Shown here: positions 24,922-40,092 of the stretch, piece by piece
How positions within the stretch are numbered: position 1 is the stretch's first letter
Layout: each line of letters begins with the position of its first letter
Assembly (NCBI GenBank): GCA_903875445.1
Contig: CAIQWD010000027.1
Coordinates: forward strand, 1-43,222
Source: an uncultured delta proteobacterium
GTDB taxonomy: Bacteria > Desulfobacterota > Desulfobulbia > Desulfobulbales > Desulfocapsaceae
DNA: 43,222 bases
Direction of reading: 5' to 3'
Translations under genes and position numbers: made by a program
Notes under the pieces: generated by a model
What the model saw: the letters and a program-made list of their open reading frames with translations, nothing else
The model's database searches: none
Told to the model about the DNA's origin: nothing

Positions 24922-26199
24922 TCATCCGCAGCCGCCGCCCGAACCGCTGCAGGTTCCCTCGGAACAGGGGTTTTTGCGGCCGCGGAGGAAGGCGGTGTTG
25001 CGATTCTCGTAGACGCTTGTCAGGCCTTCCTCGATAAAGCCCGCCGCTTCCACCGGTTTTACCCCGGATTTACTGAGGATGTCGAAGGGGGTCTGTCCTA
25101 CGCCGCTGACCAACACCGCCCGGCAGTCGCCGAGAACCCTGGCCAATTGGTGCCAGCGTTTGATACCGCCGCCGATGGCCGGAGTCGACCGATCTTCGAC
25201 CTTCTTAAAGCCGTCTTCGGTTCGTTCCCAAATTTGCAAGGTGCGGGCTTCGCCCAGGTGTTTATTGACCAGGATACCCTCCTCCGTCGCCACAGCCACA
25301 TAGGGCCGTTCCGCGGCTGGCATCGGTTTTATGGTCGAGCAGGCGGTCAGGCAACTGCGGAATTCATCGGTGCGGTCATCGCCCAAGAGGCCGACCGCAT
25401 CGGCGCGGCAGCGGGTGCAGTGGCGCATCTGCGGCAGATATATTTCCGCTTTGGCGCGGAGCTCCTCCATCATCTCCTTGCTCGGCTGGGGGATGGTGCC
25501 GAAGGGGGTATTGACGTTCGGAAACATCGCCATGCAGTTGAGCAGGTCAACGCCCAGATCCTTCATGGTCCGGGCCACCTCTTCGACATGGTGGTCGTTG
25601 ATGCCGGGGATGACGATACAGTTGACCTTGACGGTGATGCCGTGCGCCTTCAACTTACCTATCGCCGCCAACTGGCGGGTAAGCAGTATCTCCGCCGCCT
25701 GCCGGCCCCGATAGATGACCTTGCCGTCCTCGACCCAAGCATAGATCTTTTCGCCGATCGCCGGATCGACAGCGCAGACGGTGATGGTCACATGGGAGAC
25801 TTCAAGCTCAGCCAGCGTCTCTATGTACGGGCCGATAGCCATGCCGTTCGACGACACGCAGAGCAGGGCCTCCGGATGATTGCGACGGATGGTCCGCAGG
25901 GTGGCGATGGTCTCCGGGCCGTTGGCGAAGGGGTCGCCCGGACCGGCGATTCCGGCCACCGTAATGCGCGGCTCTTTTTCGAGAACCTTGTGCATATACA
26001 CTCCCGCCTGTTCCGGGGTGAGGAGGGTGGAGGTGACGCCCGGTCGCGACTCGTTGACGCAGTCATATTTGCGGTCGCAGAAATTGCATTTGATATTGCA
26101 CTTCGGGGCAACCGGTAGGTGTACCCGGCCGAATTTGCCTTTGGCGTCGGCATTAAAGCAGGGATGGCTTTTGAAATCCTGTTTTCTTGAATTTTTCAT
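24922..26199 (-). CDS. nifB: NifB, FeMo-cofactor core (NifB-co) synthase
   Basis: A 425-residue radical SAM enzyme that builds the 8Fe-9S-C core of FeMo-co. The cluster motif CNIKCNFC gives Cys34, Cys38 and Cys41. GPGDPFANGPET, SSNGMAIGPYIETLAELEVSHVT and CRADAVGLLGDD are typical. Residues about 305-400 are the NifX-like cofactor-carrying domain (HLGEARTLQIWE...GGGIKRW). The tail CSEGTCSGSGGGCG is Cys/Gly-rich. It is third in the leftward nifENB unit. Confidence 0.97.
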   Translation of the reverse strand: MKNSRKQDFKSHPCFNADAKGKFGRVHLPVAPKCNIKCNFCDRKYDCVNESRPGVTSTLLTPEQAGVYMHKVLEKEPRITVAGIAGPGDPFANGPETIATLRTIRRNHPEALLCVSSNGMAIGPYIETLAELEVSHVTITVCAVDPAIGEKIYAWVEDGKVIYRGRQAAEILLTRQLAAIGKLKAHGITVKVNCIVIPGINDHHVEEVARTMKDLGVDLLNCMAMFPNVNTPFGTIPQPSKEMMEELRAKAEIYLPQMRHCTRCRADAVGLLGDDRTDEFRSCLTACSTIKPMPAAERPYVAVATEEGILVNKHLGEARTLQIWERTEDGFKKVEDRSTPAIGGGIKRWHQLARVLGDCRAVLVSGVGQTPFDILSKSGVKPVEAAGFIEEGLTSVYENRNTAFLRGRKNPCSEGTCSGSGGGCG

Positions 26200-32363: not shown

Positions 32364-32615
32364 CTACGCCGCGTCCGCCTTGCTCAGTGTGCGGATTGAG
32401 GTAAGTTTGTCCCAGCCGTAGTAGGTGTTGACGGACTCTTCCGTGCTTTGTTCGGTTATACGAATGAAGCCGTCACCGAGAAACAGCACTGCTTGCTCAT
32501 AGATTTTGCCTTCGTTGATCTGAATTTTTACGCCTTTACGGATTTTCCGCGACAGGGTGCCGTGGACCGGCATGGAGGCATATTCAAAAATCTTTTCCAG
32601 GGTTTCCTTATTCAT
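32364..32615 (-). CDS. nif-operon small protein, unknown function (83 aa)
   Basis: It starts MNKETLEKIFEYASMPVHG with an AAGGAG site. The middle, KIRKGVKIQINEGKIYEQAVLFLGDGFIRIT, is predicted beta-rich and might be a small barrel. The C-terminus has YYGWDKLTSIRTL. 18 bases after the HEPN-like gene. Function not recognised. Confidence 0.7.
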   Translation of the reverse strand: MNKETLEKIFEYASMPVHGTLSRKIRKGVKIQINEGKIYEQAVLFLGDGFIRITEQSTEESVNTYYGWDKLTSIRTLSKADAA

Positions 32616-32633: not shown

Positions 32634-33056
32634 TCAGTGGGTTGCGCCGCTTTGGGCCTCATACAGGTGCGGATAAAGAACCGCCCGCACCTCCTCGCCG
32701 ATGGCGAGAAACCTGATTACATCTTCCTCGCTCGGGATGCGGATGGTGAAATGTTCGAGGCTACAAATCTCCTGGAAGTCGTTCATATACAGAAGCTTGT
32801 CGGCAAGTTCGGGAATCGCGCCGAGATGCAGTTGCAGTGCCCGCAGCAGGTCGCCCATGGTATGGTTTTCGGCGAGATCGCCGTTTTTCATCAAGAAGGC
32901 CATGATCAGCTTTTCGATGGCCATGCAGGTCAGATTGTAAAGGGTGTCGGTGGAAAAGGTCTTTTTCTTTTTGTTGTAGGCCCCTTGGGCGGTTCTGAGG
33001 AACTGTTCGCCGTCGCGCCGGTAGTCGCGCCAATTGTCGATCTGGACAAGTTTCAT
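32634..33056 (-). CDS. nif-operon HEPN-like helical protein
   Basis: A 140-residue protein. The ATG at 33056 overlaps the GNAT stop by 4 bases and has AAGGAG upstream within that gene. LYNLTCMAIEKLIMAFLMKNG...NHTMGDLLRAL matches the substrate-helix pattern of HEPN proteins. The catalytic R-x4-6-H motif is not evident, so it would be a non-nuclease member that binds a partner or nucleotide. Family call by pattern only. It is translationally coupled to the GNAT gene. Confidence 0.7.
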   Translation of the reverse strand: MKLVQIDNWRDYRRDGEQFLRTAQGAYNKKKKTFSTDTLYNLTCMAIEKLIMAFLMKNGDLAENHTMGDLLRALQLHLGAIPELADKLLYMNDFQEICSLEHFTIRIPSEEDVIRFLAIGEEVRAVLYPHLYEAQSGATH

Positions 33057-33508
33057 AGGAGTATCTCCTTGTTGGAGTATTTGCGCAGGCAGATGAGCTG
33101 CGTTTCCTGCCAGCCTTTTTGCCGGTAAAAATTGAGGGCCGGGAGGTTGGTGCGGTCGGCCAGCAACTGCATTCGGTCGGCACCCAAGGCACATCCCCAC
33201 TCGTCAAGGGCGATCAGCAACTCGGTGCCGATGCCTTGGTTCTGCCGGGTCGGAACAACCACCAGATCTTCAAGGAGCAGGGATGGCCCACCTTCGGCGG
33301 TGGAGATCACCAACTGAGCTGTGGCCATGCCGACCACTGCACCTTCTTTCTCGGCCACCATGACTGCCGCCGCAGGGGCGGCAAGGAGTAATTCCAAGCC
33401 CCTTTGCTGCCGCTCGGCAGAAAAATCGAAGTCCGCTTCAATGGTAAAGAGCCGGTGCAGCAATTCGACCATGGCGTTTATATCGGACCGGGTGGCCGGG
33501 CGGATCAT
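33053..33508 (-). CDS. nif-operon GNAT-family N-acetyltransferase
   Basis: A 151-residue protein starting MIRPATRSDINAMVELLHRLF. The acetyl-CoA-binding motif A is RQNQGIGTELLIALDEW, preceded by LLLEDLVVVP and followed by LPALNFYRQKGW. Substrate unknown. Located between the ferredoxin and HEPN-like genes in the nifH operon, so its target may be a nitrogenase component or another protein of this set, which is speculation. It overlaps the next gene by 4 bases. Confidence 0.88.
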   Translation of the reverse strand: MIRPATRSDINAMVELLHRLFTIEADFDFSAERQQRGLELLLAAPAAAVMVAEKEGAVVGMATAQLVISTAEGGPSLLLEDLVVVPTRQNQGIGTELLIALDEWGCALGADRMQLLADRTNLPALNFYRQKGWQETQLICLRKYSNKEILL

Positions 33509-33525
33509 AGGTGTTGTCCTGTTGT

Positions 33526-33828
33526 TTATTTGATGAGGTATTCGGCCGCCGGCGACCCGTCTTGCAAACCGTCGAGAATCGCATCGATGGCTGCCTCGCT
33601 GTCGATCCCCTTGAACCACCAGTTATCCGGCTGGATAACCATGATCGGTCCGGCTTCGCACTGCTTCAGGCAGCCGGTGGCGACCACTTGCATGTCCAGG
33701 CCGCGGTCGAGGATTTCTTCCTCGATATATTGTAAAAAACCGTCCGTCTGTTTGTGGCAGATCCCCTTGGGATCGCCTTTTACGCGAAAACTCTGGCAGA
33801 GTAGAACCTGCCTCTCCGGTGTCGCCAT
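33526..33828 (-). CDS. Thioredoxin-like [2Fe-2S] ferredoxin
   Basis: A 100-residue protein with the thioredoxin-fold ferredoxin pattern: Cys11-x12-Cys24 and Cys53-x3-Cys57 (VVATGCLKQCEAGPIMVI). These ferredoxins accompany nitrogenase genes in several lineages (Shethna-type FeSI/2Fe-2S relatives) and may supply electrons or protect the enzyme. An AAAGGAG site precedes it. It is separated from the NifB-like gene by a repeated hairpin element. Confidence 0.9.
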   Translation of the reverse strand: MATPERQVLLCQSFRVKGDPKGICHKQTDGFLQYIEEEILDRGLDMQVVATGCLKQCEAGPIMVIQPDNWWFKGIDSEAAIDAILDGLQDGSPAAEYLIK

Positions 33829-33955: not shown

Positions 33956-35128
33956 TTAATGAGATTTTCCTTTCTTGCCCTTTTTGCCGCCGCCGTACAG
34001 GACATCAACGGTACCCTCAATGTTGTCCTCGGTGATGAGGACCTTGATCCCTGCTTTGGCCAGAACCCGGCGCGGGGTATCGCCGGCGCTGGCGGCAAGG
34101 ATCACGAAACAGTCATGCAGAACAGCTGCCAGCTCGCTCCACCGCTCTGCCGTCCCCGGTTCCGGGGCGTCCCGGGTTTCCAGCAGGCAGGCCAGACCGT
34201 CTTTGCGGGGGCCGTAGATGAGCAGCCTGATTGCCTGGCCGAGATGCAGATCGATTTCGATGCCGTTCGAACTGACTACCGCCACGTTCGGCCGGGTCCC
34301 GGTCGGGCGGGGGAGCGGCGGCGCTTGCAAGGTGACGCTCCCCGCGGCCTCGCCGGGCTGGTCGAGGAGCAGCGGTTCGACGATCGGCAGAGAGATGCGG
34401 GCTTTTTCCGTTATTGCCTGTACTGCCCGTGGGGCAGGGCTTTCCATGTCCACCTCGGCGCCCGATTCCGGGGCATAGGGCATAAGGGCCATACCGCCCG
34501 CCCCGAGGACCATCATTGCCGCGCTGATCTTTGGCACATGGTCGATGTTCAGGCCGGGGTAGAGGGTGGTAAGGATTGTCACCTCGATATTATGGAATCT
34601 CAGGGCCGACACCCCGTTACGCTGTTCTCTGATCAAAAGATCCACTGCCTCGCCGACCTTCAGGGTTTTAAGTCCCGGTCTGATCCAGGCATAGATTTTT
34701 TCGAGAATGTCCGTTTTGATACCATCGACCTGCATCTCAACATAGTTGACCCCGGCTCGGGCCAGGTCTCCGGCCAGCTTTTCGCTTCCTAGTCCTAAGG
34801 TTTTCAGGCCGATCTTTACTGCCGGATAGCGCTCGTGCACCAACTGTACGGCCTCTAAGGTGATATCTGGGGTTGCCAGAGGATCGCCCGGACCGGTGAT
34901 CGCCACCATGGCGATACTTTTTCCTCTCTCTTGCATCACCCCGTCCAGCAGTTCCATGGCTTCGGGAACCATCAGACACCCACTGCGCAACGGGGTCGGC
35001 GGGGAAAACCGGGTCCGGGCGACCACCTGCGGGGCAACCGGTAGATACACAACCGATTCCGCTTTGTTCGGTTTAGGGCAACAGCAACTTTTATGGTCTG
35101 CAAGAGGGATAACGTTCATTTTTTTCAC
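33956..35128 (-). CDS. NifB-like protein without radical SAM cysteines
   Basis: A 390-residue co-linear NifB paralogue (GTG 35128; ATG 35119 possible). YLPVAPQVVARTRFS aligns with HLPVAPKCNIKCNFC of the NifB in this window, placing Val35, Thr39 and Ser42 at the three cluster cysteines. GPGDPLATPDITLEAV, DILEKIYAWI and the NifX-like C-terminal domain (about residues 270-370: HLGQAIRLLIYG, AERWSELAAVLHDC) are kept. Three consecutive cysteines (Cys15-17, KSCCCPKP) are new, and the tail is Lys-rich (GGGKKGKKGKSH). It cannot do standard radical SAM chemistry with that motif; it may bind or carry a cofactor precursor, or act as a partner of NifB or NifDK. Located directly after nifK. Confidence 0.88.
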   Translation of the reverse strand: MKKMNVIPLADHKSCCCPKPNKAESVVYLPVAPQVVARTRFSPPTPLRSGCLMVPEAMELLDGVMQERGKSIAMVAITGPGDPLATPDITLEAVQLVHERYPAVKIGLKTLGLGSEKLAGDLARAGVNYVEMQVDGIKTDILEKIYAWIRPGLKTLKVGEAVDLLIREQRNGVSALRFHNIEVTILTTLYPGLNIDHVPKISAAMMVLGAGGMALMPYAPESGAEVDMESPAPRAVQAITEKARISLPIVEPLLLDQPGEAAGSVTLQAPPLPRPTGTRPNVAVVSSNGIEIDLHLGQAIRLLIYGPRKDGLACLLETRDAPEPGTAERWSELAAVLHDCFVILAASAGDTPRRVLAKAGIKVLITEDNIEGTVDVLYGGGKKGKKGKSH

Positions 35129-35180: not shown

Positions 35181-35220
35181 AGGGCACTAGAGAACCAGTA
35201 AGGGAACTAAAGAACCAGCT
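35181..35220 (-). repeat. Tandem duplication of the nifK 3' end
   Basis: Two adjacent 20-base units, 35181-35200 and 35201-35220, agree at 17 of 20 positions. On the minus strand the second contains the true nifK end (CTGGTTCTTTAG), and the first repeats it beyond the stop as CTGGTTCTCTAG. Confidence 0.75.
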
Positions 35221-36580
35221 CGAACTTCGATTCCGGATCGTCACGATCCTTGCGGTCGAGCAGTACCCCGAGGATTTTTTCCAAGAGTCGCAGCCCGCCC
35301 ATGTAACCGACCGTCGGGAAGTGCTGATGGCCCTGGCGATCAAGGATCGGGAAGCCCCAGCGAACATAGGGCAGATCCTCGTCGCGGGCGATGTACTTGC
35401 AATAGCTGTTGCCGATTATCAGATCGACCGGCTCGTTCTTTATCCACTGATGCAGAAGGAACATGTCGCCTTTGGCCCGGACATTGACTTTTTGTCCCAT
35501 ATCCTTGGTGATTTCATTGATCCGTTCCTCAAAGCGTTTACCCGGCGTACCGGTGACGATATGGATCGGGCACATATCGATGGAGACCAGGAACTCGGTC
35601 ATGGCGATGACCTGATCGGGGTCGCCGACCAGCGCCACCTTCTTGCCGTAGAAGTACTGGTGCATATCGGAGATCATGTCCACCAGCTTGCCCCGTTCCA
35701 TCATTACCTCGTCCGGTACCGAGGTGCCGGCAACGGTCCGCAGGGCATCGACAAAACGATCGGTGGCCTTCAGACCAAAGGGCATGTCGAGGATCGAGCA
35801 GGGGACCTTGCACTTGGTGTCAAGGAGCCGGGCCGCATCCGCCGAACACCATTCGCCAAGGGCGAGCGTGCCGATACTGTTACCGCTGTCCTTAATATCG
35901 TCAATCGAGGCCCCGGCGTCGGGAAACATCTTGTATTCACCGGTGAGCGGGCCATTGAGCACCCCCGAGGTATCGGGAAACATGTTGATGCTCACTCCGA
36001 TCATGGCGGCGATCTTTTTGATCTCCTCCATGTCCGAGGGCTCGACCCAGCCGGGAATGATATTGATCTTGCCGTTCTTCTTCCCCGATGGCTTAGCCAG
36101 GGCGGCCATCGCCTTGACCATGTTGGAAAAGCCGGTGACGTGGGAACCGACATAGCTGGGGGTTTGGGCGCCGATCAGGGTCTTACCTGCGGGCACCTTC
36201 TTTTCCTTCATCGCTTTGTCGAAGATCTGCGGCAGGTCATCGCCGATGGTCTCGGACAAACAGGTGGTGTGCACGGCGATTACATCCGGTTCATAGACCG
36301 TGAAGATATTATCGATTGCCTGCAACAGGTTGGCTTGCCCGCCGAAGACCGAAGCGCCTTCGGTAAACGAGCTGGTGGCGGCGGAGATCGGTTCCTTGTA
36401 GTGGCGGGTCAGCGTGCTGCGATGGTAGGCGCAGCACCCTTGGGAACCGTGACTGTGGGGCAGACATCCCTTGATCCCCAGAGCAGCATACATGGCGCCG
36501 ATCGGCTGACAGGTCTTGGCCGGGTTTATCATCAGAGCCGACCGCTCCGTTATCTCTTTTGGTGTGTGTCGTAGTAGCAT
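35207..36580 (-). CDS. nifK: Nitrogenase MoFe protein beta chain
   Basis: A 457-residue subunit. P-cluster ligands are Cys24 (KTCQPIGAMYA), Cys49 (HGSQGCCAYHRS) and Cys107 (HTTCLSETIGDDL). It lacks the N-terminal extension of about 50 residues found in the Azotobacter/Klebsiella beta chain, a Clostridium pasteurianum-type trait. It starts 54 bases after nifD with GGGAAGG upstream. Confidence 0.98.
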   Translation of the reverse strand: MLLRHTPKEITERSALMINPAKTCQPIGAMYAALGIKGCLPHSHGSQGCCAYHRSTLTRHYKEPISAATSSFTEGASVFGGQANLLQAIDNIFTVYEPDVIAVHTTCLSETIGDDLPQIFDKAMKEKKVPAGKTLIGAQTPSYVGSHVTGFSNMVKAMAALAKPSGKKNGKINIIPGWVEPSDMEEIKKIAAMIGVSINMFPDTSGVLNGPLTGEYKMFPDAGASIDDIKDSGNSIGTLALGEWCSADAARLLDTKCKVPCSILDMPFGLKATDRFVDALRTVAGTSVPDEVMMERGKLVDMISDMHQYFYGKKVALVGDPDQVIAMTEFLVSIDMCPIHIVTGTPGKRFEERINEITKDMGQKVNVRAKGDMFLLHQWIKNEPVDLIIGNSYCKYIARDEDLPYVRWGFPILDRQGHQHFPTVGYMGGLRLLEKILGVLLDRKDRDDPESKFELVL

Positions 36581-36634: not shown

Positions 36635-38272
36635 TTATTCCCAAACATAGGTTGCCGAAAGTTCGGGGTTCTCCTGCCATGGCGCCTTCATATAACTCCA
36701 GACCCGACTATTCACCAGCCGGTCGATCTCATGGTAGAAGTTAATCGCGCCTTTAAAGCCGGCATACGGGCCACCGGAGTCGTAGCTGTGCAGCTGTTTC
36801 ATCGGAACGCCCAATTTCTGGATGGAATATTTTTCCTTGATTCCGGCGCAGAAGAGATCCGGTTTCAGCAGTTCCACCAGTTTTTCCGCCTCGTACTGAT
36901 TGAGGTCGTCGATGATCAGCGTGTCTTTGTCCATGTTCGGGTTGAGCCCTTCGTAATCCTTGAATGTGAGCCCTTCCCCCGCAAGCGCTGCCAGCTCCTC
37001 AACGGTTTTTCGTGGCCGGTAGAGCAGCGGGTCCGCCTCCACCTCGATCTCCTCGATATTCCTGCTGTCGGCATCGACCTTCAGGGTGGGGATGACATGA
37101 CGACCTTCGTAATCGTCCCGGTGGCCGAACTCATAGCCCGCCGACAGGGTCTTGATGCCCATTTCGTTAAACAGTTCCTGGTAGTGATGCGCCCTCGAAC
37201 CACCGACGAAGATCATTGCCGTCTTGCCCTTGGTCCGCGGATAGACCTCCTGCAGCGCAACCTGGACTTCCGGCATTTCCTCGGCGATAACCGCCTCGAC
37301 CCGGTCGATCAGCTCCTGCTCGCCGAAGTAGGTGGCGATTTTCCTGAGCGACTTGGCAGTCGCCTCGGCACCGATGAAGTTCACCTTGATCCAGGGAATG
37401 CCGTATTTGGTTTCGAGCATGTCGGCCACGTAGTTGATGGAGCGGTGGCACATGACGCAGCTGAGATCCGCCTGATTGGCGGATGCGAACTTGTCATAGG
37501 TGGCGTTGCCGGAAAAGGTCGAGATGTTCTTGATCCCGCATTTTTCCAGAATTCTGTCGATCTCGAAACCGTCGCCGCCGATGTTGTATTCGCCCAGCAG
37601 GTTGATTTTATACTTTTCGATCTTTTCCGTTTCGCTCTTGCCGACGACGTGGGTGAACACCTGGTTGTTGGCGATATGGTGGCCGGCCGACTGGGACACG
37701 CCTTTGTAGCCCTCACAGCTGAAGGCAAAGACATTGCAATCGCCGAACTGATCCTTCATCCTCTTGGCCACCGCGTGGATATCGTCGCCGATCAGGCCGA
37801 CCGGACAGGTGGCGAAGATGGCTATGGCCTTCGGGTGAAACAGGTCGTAGGCCTCCTGAATCGCCGCCGCCAGTTTTTTCTCTCCGCCGAAGATGACATC
37901 CGAATCCTGCATATCCGTGGTCATAGCATAGGGGATATAATTGGAGTTCGTATCATTTTTGGCGTCGGTCTGATTGCGCCGGGTCAGCCAGGCGTAAAAA
38001 CTGCAACCTACCGGTCCATGCACCAGGTTGACGATGTCGCTGGCCGGTCCCATGATAACGCCCTTGCAGCCGGCATAGGTGCAGCCGCGCATGGTGATGA
38101 TGCCGGGGATGGTGCGAACGTTGGCGACGATTTCCGGCGTGGTGTTCGAAAGCGCCTCGTTGATCATTATCTGTCCGGCGCGTTTACGGGCAACCTTCGG
38201 CGGATACTTTTCCAGCAGTTGTTCCTTGATATTGTGCGGCTCCCACTGCACCAGTTTCTGTGCTTTTGCCAT
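36635..38272 (-). CDS. nifD: Nitrogenase MoFe protein alpha chain
   Basis: A 545-residue catalytic subunit. P-cluster cysteines: Cys64 (MRGCTYAGC), Cys90 (HGPVGCSFYAW), Cys156 (ATCPVGLIGDD). FeMo-co is held by Cys275 (VMCHRSINY) and His495 (KQLHSYDSGGPYAGF); the catalytic His198 is in SAGHHIAN. Between the cofactor ligands an insertion of about 50 residues (roughly 390-440, EEIEVEADPLLYRPRKTVEE) marks the Clostridium pasteurianum-type/group II-III lineage. Molybdenum type is indicated by the nifEN set. A ribosome site AAGGAG precedes it. Confidence 0.98.
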   Translation of the reverse strand: MAKAQKLVQWEPHNIKEQLLEKYPPKVARKRAGQIMINEALSNTTPEIVANVRTIPGIITMRGCTYAGCKGVIMGPASDIVNLVHGPVGCSFYAWLTRRNQTDAKNDTNSNYIPYAMTTDMQDSDVIFGGEKKLAAAIQEAYDLFHPKAIAIFATCPVGLIGDDIHAVAKRMKDQFGDCNVFAFSCEGYKGVSQSAGHHIANNQVFTHVVGKSETEKIEKYKINLLGEYNIGGDGFEIDRILEKCGIKNISTFSGNATYDKFASANQADLSCVMCHRSINYVADMLETKYGIPWIKVNFIGAEATAKSLRKIATYFGEQELIDRVEAVIAEEMPEVQVALQEVYPRTKGKTAMIFVGGSRAHHYQELFNEMGIKTLSAGYEFGHRDDYEGRHVIPTLKVDADSRNIEEIEVEADPLLYRPRKTVEELAALAGEGLTFKDYEGLNPNMDKDTLIIDDLNQYEAEKLVELLKPDLFCAGIKEKYSIQKLGVPMKQLHSYDSGGPYAGFKGAINFYHEIDRLVNSRVWSYMKAPWQENPELSATYVWE

Positions 38273-38389: not shown

Positions 38390-38764
38390 TTAGGCGATTG
38401 ATTTCGCACCCTTCTCACCGGTACGGACGCGAACGGCATCCGCCACCGGCAGGACGAATATCTTGCCGTCTCCGGGTTTGCCGGTTTGATTGATTTGGAT
38501 AATTGCCTGAACGATATCGTCCACCTCGTCGTCCTTGACGACGATGGTGATCATCCTCTTGGGGTAGAGTTTGCCCTTTTCCCCGAGCAGTATGGCCGCT
38601 TCCTCATAGCCTTGTTCCGCACCCTTAATGAGATCGCGGTTGACAAAGCCGAGGCCTCGCCCCTGCGCCTCGTGGCCGAAGAAGGCGTCGACGCCGGCCG
38701 CGGTCAGCGCAGCCTTGGTCTTGTTCATCATATTCATACGGACCACCGCGACTATCTCTTTCAT
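38390..38764 (-). CDS. nifI2: NifI2, PII-like nitrogenase regulator
   Basis: A 124-residue PII-family protein. It starts MKEIVAVVRMNMMNKTKAAL, has a longer T-loop region (HEAQGRGLGFVNRDLIKGAEQGY) than GlnB, and ends with GKIFVLPVADAVRVRTGE. Together with NifI1 it binds the MoFe protein and blocks electron transfer in response to 2-oxoglutarate and adenylate status (known from Methanococcus). It overlaps nifI1 by 4 bases. Confidence 0.96.
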   Translation of the reverse strand: MKEIVAVVRMNMMNKTKAALTAAGVDAFFGHEAQGRGLGFVNRDLIKGAEQGYEEAAILLGEKGKLYPKRMITIVVKDDEVDDIVQAIIQINQTGKPGDGKIFVLPVADAVRVRTGEKGAKSIA

Positions 38765-39111
38765 GCCGCTACCTCCGCCGGGGTATCCTCGCGCACGCCG
38801 GAACTGATGGTGTAGACATCCTCCACCTCGGTGACGAAGATCTTGCCGTCGCCAAACGCCCCTTTGCCGGGGGTACGGGCCGCATCCATAATGGTGTTGA
38901 TGACAAAATCCTTGTCCGCCGCCTTCACCACACTCATCAGCATGGTCTTGGGGATCTCGTCATAGGTCACCGCCCCGATCTTGATGCCGCGCTGTTTGCC
39001 GCGACCGGTCACCGAATATTTGGTAACCGCGGGAAAGCCCGCATCCATAAGGGCGGCAAGAACGTCGTCAGCCTTTTCCGGTCGAACTATGGCTCTGATC
39101 ATGATCATCAT
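38761..39111 (-). CDS. nifI1: NifI1, PII-like nitrogenase regulator
   Basis: A 116-residue PII-family protein with MIMIRAIVRPEKADDVLAAL, GRGKQRGIKIGAVTYDEIPK and DGKIFVTEVEDVYTI. Position between nifH and nifI2 is the canonical order in archaea and anaerobic bacteria. Its presence in the operon implies ammonium switch-off at protein level; no draT/draG is in the window. Start at 39111, AAGGAG 9 bases upstream. Confidence 0.96.
   Translation of the reverse strand: MMIMIRAIVRPEKADDVLAALMDAGFPAVTKYSVTGRGKQRGIKIGAVTYDEIPKTMLMSVVKAADKDFVINTIMDAARTPGKGAFGDGKIFVTEVEDVYTISSGVREDTPAEVAA

Positions 39112-39144: not shown

Positions 39145-40092
<948 letters not shown>

What the first reader, a model, noticed from the sequence alone, without database searches (positions are those of the whole stretch)
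33956..35128. Full-length NifB paralogue with all three radical-SAM cysteines replaced, inside the nitrogenase operon
The gene aligns end to end with the true NifB of the same window (24922-26199), including the GPGDP motif and the NifX-like C-terminal domain, yet Val35, Thr39 and Ser42 replace Cys34, Cys38 and Cys41. A new run of three cysteines (residues 15-17) and a Lys-rich tail are added. The frame is intact and base use matches its neighbours, so it looks maintained and not decayed. It may be a cofactor or precursor carrier, a NifB partner or a MoFe-associated protein.
Basis: partly seen in the sequence, partly recalled or inferred. Interest (0 to 1): 0.85.

Follow-up and report, generated by a model that had tools for sequence, protein, structure and literature searches.

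The report
Dead NifB turned nitrogenase cofactor carrier
Next to the nitrogenase genes of many sulfate-reducing bacteria sits a copy of the cofactor-building enzyme NifB that has lost its catalytic cysteines but has kept, and tightly conserved, the part that in related proteins holds the cofactor, so it probably carries or delivers the cofactor instead of making it.

Summary
The 390-aa protein aligns along its length with the window's NifB (28% identity) but lacks CxxxCxxC and nearly all other NifB cluster ligands. It is not local decay: of 112 distinct orthologues 0 have CxxxCxxC, 108 lie directly after nifK and 107 directly before a [2Fe-2S] ferredoxin. In the window's order 105 of 116 genomes with a match to it or to NifB have it. 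dN/dS of the 25 closest pairs is 0.12-0.29 but for one 0.67. In an unrooted tree it is one group apart from all 35 NifBs included.

The strongest result: constraint is inverted. In NifB the barrel is more conserved than the NifX-like domain; here the NifX-like domain (63%) is far more conserved than the barrel (40%). The histidine matching NifX H35, a NifB-co ligand, is invariant (111/111), and NifB's N-x-H became NifX's D-x-H. CCC is not conserved (12/112); the basic tail is (90/112).

Best reading: a NifB duplicate turned non-catalytic two-domain cofactor carrier, working like NafY/NifX, probably at NifDK. It is dispensable: some relatives with nif genes lack it. Binding and client are inferred.

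The parts
33956..35128 (-). pseudo-NifB gene (390 aa, GTG start): dead radical-SAM barrel plus NifX-like domain plus basic tail
34379..35050 (-). degenerate radical-SAM barrel (residues about 27-250); radical-SAM cysteines and nearly all other NifB cluster ligands lost
   Evidence: Pfam Radical_SAM below cut-off
35003..35026 (-). former CxxxCxxC site (V35, T39, S42)
34880..34894 (-). retained GPGDP motif (residues 79-83)
33995..34294 (-). NifX-like domain (residues about 279-378), most conserved part of the family
34244..34246 (-). H295, equivalent of NifX H35 (NifB-co ligand); invariant 111/111
   Evidence: PMC13128457
34109..34111 (-). C340, invariant 111/111, shared with NifB (43/43)
33959..33994 (-). 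basic C-terminal tail GGGKKGKKGKSH
35207..36580 (-). nifK, directly upstream
   Evidence: synteny
36635..38272 (-). nifD
38390..38764 (-). nifI2 (PII-like)
   Evidence: tblastn match to an annotated P-II gene of the N. vulgaris nif cluster
38761..39111 (-). nifI1 (PII-like)
   Evidence: tblastn match to an annotated P-II gene of the N. vulgaris nif cluster
39145..39972 (-). nifH, from the start [13 protein letters not shown]; the listed ORF runs to 40026
   Evidence: tblastn match to annotated nifH
33526..33828 (-). [2Fe-2S] ferredoxin-like, directly downstream (NCBIfam matches below their cut-offs)
24922..26199 (-). true NifB (comparison)
   Evidence: TIGR01290 386.8 bits, cut-off 343.65

Best explanation
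A duplicate of a whole two-domain NifB lost the radical-SAM cysteines and nearly all other cluster ligands of the barrel and was turned into a non-catalytic cofactor carrier. The NifX-like domain, through H295, holds an apical iron of NifB-co or FeMo-co (inferred); the dead barrel and the basic tail act as docking parts that bring it to a client, most likely immature NifDK, with the logic of two-domain NafY for MoFe protein or AnfO for FeFe protein (inferred). Shown: loss of catalysis motifs, single group in the tree, purifying selection, constraint shifted to the NifX domain, NifX-type D-x-H motif, linkage to nifK. Inferred: cofactor binding, client, direction of transfer.
For: 0 of 112 orthologues have CxxxCxxC, against 49 of 50 NifBs (the one NifB without it is cut by the end of the fetched stretch). 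H295 and C340 111/111, D293 109/111 where NifB has N 43/43. Profile alignment puts H295 on residue 35 of NifX (9ian) and on the His of LDGHFG in 1p90 (1p90 is listed as 'hypothetical protein', that it is NafY's core is recalled). H35 ligates NifB-co, and NafY, VnfX and NifB's own NifX domain share this His (PMC13128457). The NifX domain is more conserved than the barrel in 136 of 136 same-locus pairs, against 6 of 136 for NifB in the same 17 loci. Directly after nifK in 108 of 112. Model pLDDT 90.2; in Foldseek NifB takes ranks 1-5 and NifX of the NifEN-NifX complex rank 24, with other radical-SAM proteins between. dN/dS 0.12-0.29 in 24 of the 25 closest pairs. Present in 105 of 116 genomes with a match in the order.
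Against: No binding data. 11 of 116 matched genomes in the order lack it, and so do 40 of 48 genomes with full-length NifB elsewhere in the phylum sample (hand count). G085 seems to have lost it (remnant) and has no PF02579 match but NifB, so a separate carrier is not needed there. Three genomes with it also have a small NifX-like ORF next to nifB (G060, G074, G083), and G061 by its coordinates. A NifX-like fold need not bind cofactor: in AnfO the NifX-like N-terminal domain binds the apo-enzyme and the other domain the cofactor (PMC11938142 passages); NifY and NafX have the fold without the His. NifX's tail docks on a positive patch of NifE, whereas this tail is basic, so the docking must differ.
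Confidence: 0.6

Rival explanations
1. NifB partner or regulator: it pairs with true NifB (pseudo-enzyme and enzyme) and accepts NifB-co or tunes its output.
For: Same fold and origin as NifB; retained GPGD, Q169, N194; the window genome keeps a true NifB.
Against: The barrel is the less conserved half; the gene is linked to nifK; in the window it lies about 7.8 kb from nifB.
Confidence: 0.15
2. NifX equivalent: a NifB-co shuttle from NifB to NifEN and not a NifDK chaperone.
For: Same His as NifX H35; in the window genome the PF02579 matches other than NifB and this protein lie on other contigs.
Against: Some genomes have both this protein and a small NifX-like ORF next to nifB; NifX docks on a positive patch of NifE whereas this tail is basic (K/R 33%, D/E 6% of the last 15 residues, 111 proteins); the gene is linked to nifK.
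Confidence: 0.15
3. The barrel keeps a small-molecule or SAM site and performs cluster-free chemistry or binds homocitrate or SAM.
For: GPGD kept in nearly all; R38, R40 and P151 are conserved here and differ from NifB, R150 is invariant.
Against: Barrel identity only 40%; NifB N118 (43/43) is replaced by L in 94 of 111; no bound-ligand data.
Confidence: 0.07
4. Decaying pseudogene or assembly error.
For: Remnant in G085, so loss does occur in some lineages; one of the 25 closest pairs has dN/dS 0.67.
Against: Long open frames in 112 loci, dN/dS otherwise 0.12-0.29, present in 105 of 116 matched genomes in the order.
Confidence: 0.02

Closest known systems
NifB (radical SAM + NifX-like domain)
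   Same: Domain order, barrel fold, GPGDP, shared ancestry
   Different: No CxxxCxxC; of the other conserved NifB cluster cysteines only the C14 column is Cys in about half (57 of 111); basic tail; inverted constraint
NifX / VnfX (small NifB-co carriers)
   Same: PF02579-type domain, H35 equivalent and, for NifX, D-x-H motif
   Different: Fused to a dead barrel; its NifX domain groups with NifB's own domain in the tree; tail basic
NafY (FeMo-co and apo-NifDK chaperone)
   Same: Two domains, one of them NifX-like with the His
   Different: NafY's other domain is a sterile alpha motif domain (title in the reference list), not a radical-SAM barrel
AnfO (two-domain cofactor sorter of Fe-nitrogenase)
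   Same: Logic of one domain on the apo-enzyme and one on the cofactor (PMC11938142 passages)
   Different: Other domains; in AnfO the NifX-like domain is the one that binds the apo-enzyme
Paenibacillus NifB3/NifB4
   Same: Extra NifB copies not essential to N2 fixation (PMC8287671 passages)
   Different: The two-domain copies are listed there with the Cx3Cx2C motif; the paper says they could be pseudogenes

Membership tests
NifB (TIGR01290) | CxxxCxxC radical-SAM motif | tested here: not met
   0 of 112 orthologues
NifB (TIGR01290) | other conserved cluster cysteines (PMC6053413 assigns them to K1/K2; matching by motif is mine) | tested here: not met
   columns of C47, C114, C261, C264 not kept; C14 column 57 of 111 Cys
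NifB (TIGR01290) | curated score cut-off 343.65 bits | tested here: not met
   105.2 bits
NifB (TIGR01290) | two-domain layout and GPGDP | tested here: met
Radical SAM superfamily (PF04055) | Pfam gathering score 29.5 | tested here: not met
   23.2 bits; the fold is nevertheless of that kind
NifX/NafY cofactor carriers (PF02579) | Pfam gathering score 26.3 | tested here: met
   29.7 bits
NifX/NafY cofactor carriers (PF02579) | cofactor-ligating His of NifX H35 | tested here: met
   alignment; 111/111
NifX/NafY cofactor carriers (PF02579) | binds NifB-co or FeMo-co | not testable with these tools
   needs biochemistry
NafY | second domain that targets apo-NifDK | tested here: inconclusive
   a second domain is present but is a dead barrel; only linkage to nifK supports the client

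The most novel reading that the evidence does not exclude
A retired maturase became the delivery vehicle: the dead barrel of an ex-NifB serves as docking module (and perhaps, with its conserved arginines, as a residual pocket for the anionic cofactor or homocitrate), making this a distinct class of nitrogenase cofactor chaperone used by sulfate reducers and cable bacteria in place of NafY.
Probability: 0.35. Interest if true: 0.8.

Novelty: new variant of a known kind. Interest (0 to 1): 0.64.

Why it matters
How the FeMo cofactor is carried between maturases and NifDK is not settled, and the work seen here was done mainly in Azotobacter. This family offers a natural separation of function: NifB's fold with the catalytic ligands removed and the carrier-type domain under the strongest constraint, in the nifHDK operon of anaerobic bacteria. 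It makes the unknown role of NifB's own NifX-like domain (PMC5715403) testable, and may be a useful part for nitrogenase engineering. It also bears on sequences that a NifB census set aside as wrongly annotated (PMC5715403), although whether this family was among them is not known.

Tried and rejected
The first genome scan with the single protein found nothing; the scan with alignment A2 worked. Its 80 kept loci bear Desulfobacterota-type or unspecific titles (proteobacterium, deltaproteobacterium, 'Bacterium'); 45 of the 125 relatives were not returned, so presence in other phyla is not excluded. The idea that CCC is a new metal site was dropped (12 of 112). The idea that the NifX domain came from a stand-alone NifX was dropped (short alignment, quick tree). 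Replacement by a stand-alone NifX in genomes without the gene was not consistent: G082 and G068 have a small NifX-like ORF by nifB, G085 and G069 have no PF02579 match but NifB, and G063's second match is far away. Promoter and terminator scan gave nothing clearly above its shuffles. Model coordinates were not in the Python box, so no pocket overlay on NifB was done. Literature; no paper naming this family was seen in those listings (open-licence PMC only). Papers: PMC13128457 outline and sections 5 (part 1 of 2), 7, 8; PMC5715403 passages and section 13; PMC11938142, PMC8287671 and PMC6053413 passages; the rest search listings only.

Full report
Observation. The ORF is on the minus strand, in the order nifH-I1-I2-D-K-[this gene]-[2Fe-2S] ferredoxin; nifE-N-B lie further on. 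It is 28% identical to the window's NifB over 373 columns. NCBIfam NifB gives 105.2 bits, far below its cut-off of 343.65; Pfam Radical_SAM is below and PF02579 above its cut-off. The window lies in an unnamed 4.9-Mb, 117-contig genome; the nearest named orthologues are MAGs and isolates of Desulfobulbales type (the order name is my reading of the titles).

Family. Loci were sorted into this family or NifB by which of the two window proteins scored higher in tblastn. Of 97 genomes searched, the window's own included, 58 have a match at E 1e-10 or better; by my count of the list 53 have this gene and 5 (G063, G068, G069, G082, G085) only NifB (G068 read). In the order 159 genomes at least 90% complete, the own included, were searched: 116 have a match at E 1e-60 or better, 105 with scores of this family (359-562 bits) and 11 with NifB-level scores only (about 300 bits or less) (hand count; a missing match can be a gap in an assembly). 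Elsewhere in the phylum sample of 395 genomes, 8 of 48 genomes with a full-length NifB-level match (250-302 bits) have it; genomes with lower-scoring matches (NifN-B-length frames, short radical-SAM proteins) had none in the list (hand count). In the class of G110, 6 of 7 matched genomes, of 30 searched. Named carriers include Desulfofustis glycolicus, Desulfogranum spp., Desulfobulbus alkaliphilus, Desulfopila aestuarii, Pseudodesulfovibrio pelocollis and Candidatus Electrothrix cable bacteria.

Synteny. Of 112 distinct loci, nifK is the next of the 13 genes looked for upstream, within 600 bp, in 108 (1 cut by the end of the stretch, 3 exceptions), and the ferredoxin downstream, within 800 bp, in 107 (3 cut, 2 exceptions). 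In the cable-bacterial L127 nifK lies 5 kb away, and in L132 none was found in the 8 kb upstream. Nitratidesulfovibrio vulgaris has nifHI1I2DK-ferredoxin-ENB without it. In G063 and G082 nifK is followed directly by the ferredoxin. In G085 a piece that by eye reads as the gene's tail lies between nifK and ferredoxin; its tblastn match is 14 residues, 71%, E 7.3, so the position and the motif carry the claim, not the score.

Residues. On 111 members and 43 NifBs of near full length: the three radical-SAM Cys columns are mostly A/V, I/T/L and A/S (Cys in 12 of 111 at the third); NifB's C47, C114, C261 and C264 are not kept (C114's column Cys in 12); C14's column is Cys in 57 of 111. PMC6053413 (passages) assigns NifB cysteines to the SAM, K1 and K2 clusters; my column matching to that paper is by motif. 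Kept: GPGD, G112, W148, R150, Q169, N194. In the NifX part H295 and C340 are invariant and D293 is 109/111, where NifB has N in 43/43. The profile alignment places H295 on residue 35 of the NifX chain 9ian, a ligand of NifB-co (PMC13128457).

Constraint. Mean identity over all pairs: this family barrel 0.398, NifX domain 0.626 (6105 pairs); NifB barrel 0.633, NifX domain 0.559 (903 pairs). In the 17 loci that hold both genes, the NifX domain beats the barrel in 136 of 136 pairs for this family and in 6 of 136 for NifB; in disjoint nearest pairs, 52 of 55 against 5 of 21. The 136 pairs are not independent. dN/dS (own Nei-Gojobori script) of the 25 closest pairs, some sharing members, lies between 0.12 and 0.29 except one of 0.67 at dS 0.11; NifB of that same pair of loci has 0.22.

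Origin. Careful tree of 73 rows (38 of 111 members and 30 of 43 NifBs, chosen for spread, and 5 outgroup rows): the family is one side of a branch, 100/100, in 100% of 200 bootstrap trees; the root is not known. A short NifX-domain tree (79 rows, quick, many forks open) places its domain with Desulfobacterota NifB domains and not with small stand-alone NifX ORFs. So a whole NifB was duplicated, most likely once.

Structure. AlphaFold2 on A2 gave pLDDT 90.2, pTM 0.85, with residues 1-14, 261-266 and 387-390 below 50. Foldseek: NifB chains of 6y1x, 7jma, 7bi7 and 7jmb take ranks 1-5 (E 1.0e-19 to 1.4e-17; 7jma TM 0.94 on the target); other radical-SAM structures follow, and NifX 9ian_F is rank 24 at E 2.1e-6.

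Function. NafY and AnfO are two-domain proteins that combine a hold on an apo-enzyme with a hold on a cofactor (PMC11938142 passages). This family could have the same logic with other parts: a constrained NifX domain and a dead barrel. Against an easy transfer, AnfO's NifX-like domain is the one that binds the apo-enzyme; here the kept His argues for cofactor. Linkage to nifK and the basic tail point to a client other than NifX's site on NifE. Cofactor binding and client are inferred. A NifB census excluded 28% of candidate sequences, most without Cx3Cx2C and each with a NifX domain, and took them for NifX (PMC5715403); some may belong here, which I could not check.

Limits. Genomes outside the phylum were reached only through one motif scan and the plasmid search, where the four matches I fetched beyond N. 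vulgaris and Treponema were NifB or radical-SAM genes used as outgroups. Nif genes were named by similarity to the window's proteins. Hand counts rest on printed lists.

Noticed in passing
L185:2890-3536: In the nif-bearing relative G085, between nifK and ferredoxin, a stretch reads by eye as a remnant of the pseudo-NifB tail, beside two small ORFs (one resembling window 32364-32615, one that looks like a Nif11-type protein; the latter name is recalled).
   Followed up: partly
33053-33619 and 32634-33200: A GNAT-like acetyltransferase and an ORF I called HEPN-like (both names recalled, not tested) follow the ferredoxin in many orthologous loci; their link to nitrogen fixation is unexplained.
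   Followed up: partly
L127, L132: In cable bacteria (Ca. Electrothrix) the pseudo-NifB and ferredoxin stay together but nifK is 5 kb away (L127) or not found in the 8 kb upstream (L132).
   Followed up: no
L036, L049, L033, L168, L200: Small stand-alone NifX-like ORFs lie next to nifB in some relatives, with or without the pseudo-NifB.
   Followed up: partly
L053:9929-11192: On a Treponema saccharophilum plasmid a NifB-like radical-SAM protein and a NifX-like protein are encoded as two overlapping genes before nifH.
   Followed up: no
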